Assembly: GCA_945787445.1 (NCBI GenBank)
Contig: CALZHT010000031.1
Location: 1-64,000, forward strand
Source of the DNA: an uncultured Desulfobulbaceae bacterium
GTDB taxonomy: Bacteria > Desulfobacterota > Desulfobulbia > Desulfobulbales > CALZHT01
Direction of reading: 5' to 3'
DNA: 64,000 bases
Shown in pieces: positions 9,960 to 63,000 of this stretch (the first letter of the stretch is position 1; each line of letters opens with the position of its first letter). The notes beneath the pieces were generated by a model. The model was not told where the DNA came from. It worked only from the letters and a program-made list of their open reading frames with translations, and made no database searches. Position numbers and translations under genes: made by a program.

Positions 9960-9967
9960 TTGACATA

Positions 9968-10158
9968 CCCGCAAAAAGCCGGGAAAGCGGTTAACATGCC
10001 ATGCAATTTCAACTAGTTACAAGGTAATACATCGATGAACTAGCAATAGCTCCATAAGAAGCACCTGATGTGTTTATCGCCCTTTTCATTGCAAAGAGTT
10101 ATAATGGTTAAGGCGTCCGCCCAGCAGACAAATCGTATTATTTTACGATTTCATCAAT
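9968..10158 (+). repeat. Repeat family A, copy 1 (long form)
   Basis: The element begins CCCGCAAAAAGCCGGG, continues through GCGGTTAAC, ATTTCAACTAGTTACA and CATCGATGAAC, has a middle part ending GCAGACAAATCG, and closes with a hairpin ending ACGATTTCATCAAT. Other copies are at 37401-37500, 40248-40345, 44696-44792 and 62776-62963. This copy fills most of the gap between ftsH and the glutaredoxin gene and has no ORF. Confidence 0.85.
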
Positions 10159-37400: not shown

Positions 37401-37500
37401 AATTGATGAAATCGTAAAAAAATACGATTTCATCGATGTATTACATTGTAACTATTTGAAATTACATGGCACGTTAACCGCTTTCCCGTCTTTTTGCGAG
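37401..37500 (-). repeat. Repeat family A, copy 2 (short form)
   Basis: On the minus strand, an A-rich end, GCGGTTAACGTGCCATGTAA, ATTTCAAATAGTTACAATG and CATCGATGAAATCG are followed by the closing hairpin ATGAAATCGTA-TACGATTTCAT. It lies between the ACR3 pseudogene and the AI-2E gene. Confidence 0.85.
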
Positions 37501-37585
37501 TGTGTCCTAATTGATTCCCCGATAAGTATGAAAAGGAAAATGGTATGACTAGGAATCCTTTCATTTTCCGGTTTGAAGGTGGCAA

Positions 37586-40016: not shown

Positions 40017-40247
40017 GATAACTAAACAGATACCTTGCTTTTGGGCGATATTTGCTCTAATAATTTTCACCATTAACTATTCAACAAGATTTTTTTATCT
40101 GCTCACTTGATTTTTTATAGAGCCGTGCCTATTTTATCGGCCAGCCTGAAAAATATTCACATTTTAGGCATTGATTCAAGCAAACATAAAAATGGATGGG
40201 TGTAAATTGATATGGCTGCGCTTGCGTTGTCTTTCAATCTTGATGAT

Positions 40248-40345
40248 CCCGCAAAAAGTCGGGAAAGCAGTTAACGTGCCATGTAATTTCAACTAGGTAC
40301 AACGTAATACATCGATGAAACCGTATTTTTTACGATTTCATCAAT
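40248..40345 (+). repeat. Repeat family A, copy 3 (short form)
   Basis: It runs from CCCGCAAAAAGTCGGG to the closing hairpin ATGAAACCGTA-TACGATTTCATCAAT. It lies in the 493-base gap between ilvE and groES (40017-40509), which otherwise holds only the groES promoter region. Confidence 0.85.
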
Positions 40346-40509
40346 CTTTACAATCCCTTAAAAAGCAGGGTTGTCAGTTACGGTGTCCTGATTTTTCAAT
40401 GGGGTATTACACGAAACGGCGTTGAATCTGCTATTTAAGCAAGTTCATCAAATTTATAAGTAGTTGTTACTCAAATCAATAAAACTTAATAAAGAAATGG
40501 AGGCGTTTT

Positions 40510-43568: not shown

Positions 43569-43666
43569 GGAAGTGGAAAGGGCGCTGGTGGCCCTCCCGG
43601 ACTTCAAATCCGGTGCACTGGGTTAACAGCTTGGTGGGTGGGTTCGATTCCCATGCACTTCCGCCA
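43569..43666 (+). tRNA. selC: tRNA-Sec (anticodon TCA)
   Basis: The 98-base gene has the UGA-decoding anticodon TCA in ACTTCAAAT, a long variable arm (about 23 bases), a T-loop TTCGATT and CCA end. The acceptor pairs GGAAGTG with CACTTCC (7 pairs plus one G-G apposition); the D-stem AGGGC/GCCCT is long. This is the selenocysteine tRNA, so the organism should make selenoproteins. Confidence 0.95.
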
Positions 43667-44556: not shown

Positions 44557-44695
44557 GTGGAAAATCGTAAGCCTTTTTAATTAATAAAATTTTGCTTGGT
44601 CCGGAAAAATAAAAGAGGATGGCTAATGTTTCAATAAAAAAGTATGGTATTGCAAAAATAAACTTTATTTTTTTATTGTCTCCATCTTTGATGGT

Positions 44696-44792
44696 CTCGC
44701 AAAAGCCAGGAAAGCGGTTAACGTGCCATGTAATTTCAACTAGTTACAACGTGATACATCGATATAATCGTTTTTTTTACGATTTTATCAAT
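44696..44792 (+). repeat. Repeat family A, copy 4 (short form)
   Basis: It runs from CTCGCAAAAGCCAGG to the closing hairpin AATCG-TTTTTTTT-ACGATTTTATCAAT, in the gap between glyQ and the YfaZ-like gene (44557-44967). The hairpin has drifted more than in other copies. Nothing else is recognisable there. Confidence 0.8.
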
Positions 44793-62775: not shown

Positions 62776-62963
62776 TTGATGTAATCGTAAAAATACGATT
62801 TGTCTGCTACGCGGACGCGTTGACCACCTTTATTTTTTGCGATGAAACGGGCGATGCGTTAAGCCGGGACTTCTTACAATAGTATTGCCAGTTCATCGAT
62901 ATATGAGGTTATAACTACTTGAAATTACATGGCACGTTAACCGCTTTCTCGAATTTTTGCGGG
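62776..62963 (-). repeat. Repeat family A, copy 5 (long form)
   Basis: On the minus strand it runs from CCCGCAAAAATTCGAG through GCGGTTAACGTGCC and CATCGATGAACTGGCAATA to GCAGACAAATCG and the closing hairpin TCGTATTTTTACGA. It matches copy 1 along the whole length, including the middle that short copies lack. Confidence 0.85.
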
Positions 62964-63000
62964 ATTATCTTACTTGATTTTTCCCAGGATGAAGTTTTAA

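What the first reader, a model, noticed from the sequence alone, without database searches (positions are those of the whole stretch)
9968..10158. Dispersed repeat family A with a long form and short forms
Five copies lie in intergenic gaps at 9968-10158, 37401-37500, 40248-40345, 44696-44792 and 62776-62963, in both orientations. Shared blocks are CCCGCAAAAAGCCGGG-like, GCGGTTAACGTGCCATGTAA, ATTTCAACTAGTTACAA, CATCGATGAA and a closing hairpin around TCGTA/TACGA. Two copies are about 190 bp and share a middle of about 90 bp ending GCAGACAAATCG; the other three lack it. No copy encodes a protein. The pattern fits a non-autonomous mobile element or an abundant structured RNA or DNA element whose function is unknown.
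Basis: seen in the sequence. Interest (0 to 1): 0.72.

Follow-up and report, generated by a model that had tools for sequence, protein, structure and literature searches.

The report
Short mobile elements built around IHF
The five repeats are copies of a tiny, gene-less jumping DNA element, present about 130 times in this Desulfobulbales genome and in diverged form in over half of the sampled genomes of its order, whose ~100-bp layout centres on a sequence matching the binding site of the DNA-bending protein IHF, which suggests that IHF folds the element so that its two ends can meet.

Summary
The five copies align end to end, and a covariance model finds about 124-141 copies in the 4.46-Mb genome, including a sixth, decayed copy in the window at 40349-40449. 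They are non-autonomous DNA transposons (MITEs). They have imperfect terminal inverted repeats (GATGATCCCGCAAAAA / GATGAAATCGTAAAAA) and a 6-7-bp AT-rich target duplication (AANNNT(T); 64/122 copies versus about 9 expected), and 121/122 lie between genes. The short form (~101 bp) is probably ancestral; long forms carry a 92-bp and/or a 36-bp block. The conserved interior includes the IHF consensus WATCAANNNNTTR at the element's centre, with its NNNN positions the most variable. In 27 diverged copies from other genomes it sits at the same place (23/27 within one mismatch; 2.1 expected). Elements fetched by their ends alone also have it, centrally (17/53 versus 1.2 expected). The right end is a palindrome kept by compensatory changes. 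Homologues occur in 79/146 genomes of the order but in only 1 of about 237 outside it. No transposase-bearing partner was found. Proposed mechanism: a transposase supplied in trans acts on ends brought together by an IHF bend. Mobility is supported by sequence; IHF action is inferred. Closest known kind: Correia/NEMIS-type MITEs.

The parts
9962..10155 (+). Long-form copy (194 bp); flanking repeat ATTAATT / AATAATT (6 of 7 bases alike)
10007..10019 (+). IHF-consensus-like site TTTCAACTAGTTA in the copy at 9962-10155
10040..10129 (+). Block present only in the long form, inserted into the left arm of the right-hand palindrome
37405..37506 (-). Short-form copy (102 bp), left end of the GACACACTCGC type; flanking repeat AATTAG / AATTAT
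37449..37461 (-). IHF-consensus-like site TTTCAAATAGTTA
40242..40342 (+). Short-form copy (101 bp); perfect 6-bp target duplication AATCTT at 40236-40241 and 40343-40348
40287..40299 (+). IHF-consensus-like site TTTCAACTAGGTA at the centre of the element
40314..40342 (+). Right-hand palindrome GATGAAACCGTATTTTTTACGATTTCATC, its outer arm being the right terminal repeat
40349..40449 (+).
44690..44789 (+). Short-form copy (100 bp); flanks ATCTTT / AATTTT, duplication decayed
44734..44746 (+). IHF-consensus-like site TTTCAACTAGTTA
62778..62969 (-). Long-form copy (192 bp); flanking repeat AAGTAA / AAATAA
62912..62924 (-). IHF-consensus-like site TTTCAAGTAGTTA

Best explanation
[quoted passage not shown] A transposase supplied in trans recognises the ends (left GAYRNNNYCGYAAAAA; right a head-to-head palindrome of the same motif) and inserts the element into AT-rich intergenic sites, duplicating 6-7 bp of the form AANNNT(T). 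Host IHF (or a close IHF/HU-family relative) binds the site in the middle and bends the element sharply, so that the two ends, each about 45 bp away on stiff DNA, come together for the transposase to pair and cut them. Shown here: ends, target duplication, copy number, intergenic location, central IHF consensus conserved across genera, palindrome conserved by compensatory change, IHF-type genes in the host. Inferred: the transposase, IHF binding, and its role in pairing the ends. Long forms probably arose by insertion of a 92-bp and/or a 36-bp block into the ~101-bp layout.
For: Copies: 68 cores at <=3 mismatches, reversed control 0; 141 CM matches, of which the best 124 were sorted by length, in classes ~104, ~140, ~196 and ~232 bp including two bases of the duplication on each side. 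Target duplication: excess left/right flank matching only at the predicted positions, z 5.8-8.3; blocks >=5 nt in 64/122 copies v about 9 expected, ending 4 or 5 nt into the right flank; the same in other genomes of the order, 15/28 v 3.05. Intergenic: 121/122. Other families share ends and duplication (L035: AAAGTT both sides; TIR pairs mostly 80-200 bp apart). IHF site: short copies 56/67 within one mismatch of WATCAANNNNTTR v 15.4 expected, nearly all at one position, with the NNNN positions the most variable of the interior; copies from other genomes 12 perfect + 11 one-mismatch of 27 v 2.1 expected, all at position 48-49; elements fetched only by their ends, 90-145 bp, 17/53 central sites v 1.2 expected and 6 perfect v 0. 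Host encodes IHF-alpha- and IHF-beta-like proteins. Right palindrome: 95% of cells paired; whole structure 21 cells with two-sided change v 6.4 shuffled, 0/500. Order-wide: 79/146 genomes against 1 of about 237 outside the order.
Against: No transposase-bearing element with these ends was found in the own genome, in 120 TIR loci, or next to ISNCY and IS1634-type transposases. About half of the copies have no clear duplication. The own-genome IHF site departs from consensus at its second base (T for A) in nearly all copies. IHF binding is not measured. Elements of 146-200 bp with the same ends show no central IHF enrichment (3/52 v 1.4), so IHF is not needed by every user of these ends. The near-fixed length across genera is partly selected by the model used to find them.
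Confidence: 0.75

Rival explanations
1. The elements spread as MITEs, but the conserved IHF site is kept because they act as IHF-bound chromosome-architecture or gene-regulation sites (as proposed for IHF-binding BIMEs in enterobacteria), not because transposition needs IHF.
For: About 130 dispersed copies in the genome, almost only between genes; site conserved over an order.
Against: No bias in gene orientation: convergent 11, divergent 25, tandem 65 of 101, close to the share of intergenic DNA. Presence is patchy (79/146 genomes), and sequence differs greatly between genera, as for mobile families. The centred position and the ~100-bp length fit a geometric role between two ends better than a stand-alone binding site.
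Confidence: 0.2
2. A structured RNA family: the elements are transcribed and the hairpins act in RNA (processing, termination, stability).
For: The right-hand palindrome covaries within and between genomes; intergenic location.
Against: Target duplications and terminal repeats. G.T and A.C mispairs about equal in the own genome, no strand preference. Only the right-end palindrome covaries well; the left hairpin is weak (83% paired) and not kept across genera. No Rfam match. No preference for gene 3' ends.
Confidence: 0.06
3. REP/BIME-type repeats copied by a RAYT (Y1 tyrosine) transposase as single-stranded hairpins.
For: High copy number, intergenic, palindromic right end.
Against: Target duplications and inverted ends, which hairpin-processing Y1 transposases do not make (general knowledge of the IS200/IS605 family). 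RAYT genes were not searched for directly.
Confidence: 0.04

Closest known systems
Correia elements / NEMIS (Neisseria)
   Same: ~107-bp short and ~155-bp long forms of one MITE, many copies, terminal inverted repeats, target duplication, an IHF site shown to bind IHF in vitro in the long form (PMC2229807)
   Different: TA at the termini there, GA..TC ends and a 6-7-bp AANNNT(T) duplication here; IHF site there only in the extra block of the long form, here in all forms and at the centre of the short one
QMITE1 (Coxiella burnetii)
   Same: MITE with a conserved WATCAANNNNTTR IHF site (PMC5896051)
   Different: ~400 bp, 21-bp repeats, 2-4-bp duplications; described in one species
Chunjie MITE (Geobacter uraniireducens)
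   Same: 178-235-bp MITE in a formerly deltaproteobacterial genome, conserved ends and direct repeats (PMC10969869)
   Different: Primary paper not held, so ends and duplication could not be compared
RUP, ERIC, YPAL repeats
   Same: 100-170-bp non-coding intergenic MITE-like repeats (PMC2229807)
   Different: TA or variable duplications, no IHF site listed for them, other taxa
IS1634 and ISNCY insertion sequences
   Same: IS1634 makes 5-6-bp AT-rich duplications (PMC2266710), near the 6-7 bp seen here
   Different: Ends differ; none of the order's retrieved ISNCY/IS1634 loci carries these ends as its own; one ISNCY copy sits inside such a MITE

Membership tests
MITE (non-autonomous DNA transposon) | Short, no transposase gene | tested here: met
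   about 100-250 bp, all copies
MITE (non-autonomous DNA transposon) | Terminal inverted repeats | tested here: met
   GATGATCCCGCAAAAA / GATGAAATCGTAAAAA, imperfect
MITE (non-autonomous DNA transposon) | Target-site duplication | tested here: met
   64/122 v ~9 expected, 6-7 bp
MITE (non-autonomous DNA transposon) | Many dispersed copies | tested here: met
MITE (non-autonomous DNA transposon) | Autonomous partner with matching ends | tested here: inconclusive
   None found in the genomes and loci sampled; not required for the class, and the search was not exhaustive
MITE (non-autonomous DNA transposon) | Empty sites in close relatives | not testable with these tools
   No same-genus genome among the relatives returned
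Correia/NEMIS | TA at the termini | tested here: not met
   GA..TC ends with AANNNT(T) duplication
Correia/NEMIS | Two length classes and an IHF site | tested here: met
   supports 'works like' only, since the termini test failed
REP/RAYT | No target duplication | tested here: not met
   duplication present
REP/RAYT | Linked Y1 transposase gene | not tested
   no search made
Any Rfam RNA family | Match at gathering score | tested here: not met
   only tRNAs in the window

The most novel reading that the evidence does not exclude
An order-wide class of ~100-bp mobile elements whose defining constraint is mechanical: the element is a minimal IHF-bent fold of double-stranded DNA, with ends and IHF site at fixed spacing, moved by a transposase that is not of a known MITE-donor family or that is encoded unlinked and only rarely present. 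Sequences between the fixed parts are free to change.
Probability: 0.25. Interest if true: 0.75.

Novelty: new variant of a known kind. Interest (0 to 1): 0.5.

Why it matters
It turns an unnamed repeat into a testable mechanism: on DNA this short the two ends could hardly meet without a bend, and an IHF-type site has been kept at the mid-point while the rest of the sequence changed. It also gives a common explanation for many unexplained intergenic repeats of Desulfobulbales and, through the shared ends, of Desulfobacterota, and it predicts dozens to over a hundred dispersed IHF sites in each of many genomes of environmentally important sulfate reducers and relatives.

Tried and rejected
Autonomous partner: TIR pairs 0.5-3.5 kb apart were inspected in the loci fetched from relatives and public contigs; the pairs that enclosed transposases were insertion sequences nested inside a MITE (L337, IS5-like by eye with its own GAGACCTTTGCA ends; L399, ISNCY with its own TAGTGTCTGTCC ends). 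ISNCY and IS1634 transposase loci of the order do not carry these ends as their own. Phage and viral collections: 3 exact TIR hits in the viral contigs, none for the element in the phage or plasmid records. Coding reading of the long-form block (ELIARFIARNKGGQRVRVADK in some copies, by eye): interrupted by stops and frameshifts in others, dropped. First definitions of the target duplication (4 bp, or 8-9 bp TCAANNNTG) were replaced by 6-7 bp after per-copy analysis.

Full report
CHECKING THE OBSERVATION. All five copies exist, in intergenic gaps and in both orientations, and align from end to end. The limits, worked out from target duplications, are 9962-10155 (+), 37405-37506 (-), 40242-40342 (+), 44690-44789 (+) and 62778-62969 (-). 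A sixth, decayed copy abuts the third at 40349-40449 (E=0.0013 genome-wide with model R1; 1.9e-7 in the window with model R2). Rfam has no match to any of them. The 38-bp core is found 68 times in the 4.46-Mb genome with up to 3 mismatches and never when the pattern is reversed. A covariance model of 30 copies finds 141 matches at E<=0.01. Of the 124 best, 69 are ~104 bp, 41 ~196 bp, 7 ~232 bp and 6 ~130-140 bp (lengths include two bases of the duplication on each side). The classes fit a ~101-bp layout with a 92-bp block, a 36-bp block, or both.

ANATOMY. The 5' end reads GATGATCCCGCAAAAAGTCGGG, with variants GACACACTCGC, GATAATCCCGC and GACATACCCGC. The 3' end is a palindrome, GATGAAATCGTA-TTTTT-TACGATTTCATC, whose outer arm is the inverted counterpart of the 5' end. 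The block unique to the long forms lies inside the left arm of this palindrome. Because the copies seen in other genera nearly all have the ~101-bp layout, I take the short form as ancestral and the long form as derived; this is an inference.

TARGET DUPLICATION. With 122 copies fetched with flanks, left and right flanks of the same copy agree far more often than flanks of shuffled copies at exactly the positions expected, z 5.8-8.3. Per copy, 64 of 122 share a block of 5 or more bases against about 9 expected. The blocks end 4 or 5 nt into the right flank and their commonest short form is AANNNT or AANNNNT. So insertion duplicates 6-7 bp, AT-rich, with a preference for AA..TT. An example is AATCTT at the 40-kb copy. 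Copies from other genomes of the order show the same, 15/28 against 3.05. Only 1 of 122 copies lies inside a reading frame of at least 110 codons, and gene orientation around the others follows the share of intergenic DNA (rough gene calls).

THE CENTRE IS AN IHF-TYPE SITE. In the 42 short copies of exactly 105 bp, the stretch TTTCAA-NNNN-TTA at positions 48-60 is 90-98% conserved at its fixed letters, while positions 54, 55 and 57, inside the NNNN, are at 50-60% and are the most variable of the interior. This is the IHF consensus WATCAANNNNTTR with one change at its second base. Of 67 short copies 56 match within one mismatch, against 15.4 in dinucleotide shuffles. In 27 diverged copies from other genomes, 12 are perfect and 11 have one mismatch, all at position 48 or 49, against 0.2 and 1.9 expected. 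These copies were found with a model that contains the site, so an independent test was made on elements fetched only by the terminal pattern TTGATGNACTCGYAAAAAGTC. Among those of 90-145 bp, 17 of 53 have a site within one mismatch in the middle fifth of the element (1.2 expected), 6 of them perfect (0 expected), and only one has an off-centre site. Several share no alignable interior, and one is GC-rich (AAACAACAAGTTG, L188). Longer elements with the same ends (146-200 bp) show no enrichment. The host encodes an IHF-alpha-like protein at the NCBIfam cut-off (111 of 111 bits) and an IHF-beta-like one just below it (112.8 of 115), besides HU-type proteins.

PALINDROME. In an ordinary MAFFT alignment of 38 short copies the right palindrome is 95.4% paired; for the whole structure 21 cells show two-sided change against 6.4 shuffled, 0/500, e.g. 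81-97 as AU, UA and CG, and 78-100 as GC and AU. Across genera, on an alignment fitted to the model and so leaning towards it, 92% are paired and 37 cells change on both sides against 11. In the own genome G.T and A.C mispairs are about equal (23 v 18; 46 v 44), which argues for a DNA palindrome or a double protein site rather than an RNA stem. Across genera it is 23 v 2, but most of the G.T cells are one fixed terminal pair. The left hairpin is weaker (83%) and is not kept between genera.

DISTRIBUTION. Model R2, built on own and relatives' copies, finds the element in 79 of 146 genomes of the order, 34 of 54 genera, often with 20 or more copies even though only 27 candidates per genome were scored. 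In the phylum sample only one genome outside the order, of about 237, has it at E<=1e-4. The order is Desulfobulbales by inference: order member G122 has a contig of the same length (111822 bp) and with the same hit as Desulfogranum marinum DSM 2058. The ends reach further than the element: the exact 21-base end pattern occurs in 33/146 order genomes with 0 reversed controls and in Desulfobacterales, Syntrophaceae and others, bounding small elements mostly of 80-200 bp with very different contents, including palindromic repeats as cargo.

MECHANISM. Shown: ends, duplication, copy number, intergenic placement, a central IHF-type site kept over an order, a maintained palindrome, host IHF-type genes. 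Inferred: a trans-acting transposase cuts at GA..TC, and IHF bends the ~100-bp element at its mid-point so the ends can be paired. DNA of this length is too stiff to bring its ends together unaided, and IHF assists Tn10 transposition and lambda integration in a comparable way (established knowledge; Tn10 cited in PMC5896051). The gap is the transposase: no element with these ends and a transposase gene of its own was found, despite scanning end pairs up to 3.5 kb apart and ISNCY and IS1634 loci. Two insertion sequences were instead found nested inside such elements (L337, L399).

KNOWN RELATIVES. It is a MITE by the tests available. It works like the Correia/NEMIS elements of Neisseria (short and long forms, IHF site; PMC2229807) and shares the IHF site with QMITE1 of Coxiella (PMC5896051), but differs from both in duplication, ends and placement of the site. 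It is not a Correia element (TA termini tested, not met). Searches for literature on such repeats in Desulfobulbales or Deltaproteobacteria returned nothing relevant; the open-access library is incomplete. Novelty: a new variant of a known kind, notable for its order-wide conservation of geometry rather than sequence.

LIMITS. The genome is a draft assembly of 227 contigs; no same-genus genome was among the relatives, so empty sites could not be shown. Counts in relatives are lower bounds. The near-constant length in other genera is partly selected by the model. The IHF consensus is degenerate; binding must be measured.

Noticed in passing
window 40349-40449: Decayed sixth copy back to back with the 40-kb copy; the younger one seems to have used its AATCTT flank as target.
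   Followed up: yes
L033:806, L035:935, L038:1138, L043:1000, L049:976 (own genome): Other small elements with the same ends carry palindromic repeats as cargo (ACCACAGAGGACACAGAG..., GTCATTTCGAACG...GAAATGACA); L035 has the same kind of duplication (AAAGTT).
   Followed up: partly
L232:2639-2690, L259:2796-2850, L315:1117-1190: In some Desulfobacterales and relatives the end motif is repeated in tandem at 26-bp spacing (GATGAACTCGTAAAAAGTC-CGATTTA-GACGGTTTCGTAAAAAGTTC), like iterated transposase-binding sites.
   Followed up: no
L399:723-1936 and L337:4428-6013: An ISNCY-type and an IS5-like insertion sequence nested inside elements with these ends; L399 is flanked by a perfect 7-bp duplication (AACATAT).
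   Followed up: partly
L040:943-1082 (own genome): A ~139-bp element with the same ends that holds the long-form block but not the IHF core, suggesting exchange of modules between families.
   Followed up: no
L142, L143, L150, L202, L204, L209, L210: A separate, widespread ~120-210-bp family with one end TTGATGGCGTCGYAAAAAGTC, shared by several genera; its main cluster shows no IHF-site enrichment.
   Followed up: partly
window 43569-43666: Selenocysteine tRNA gene, about 1 kb from one copy of the repeat.
   Followed up: no
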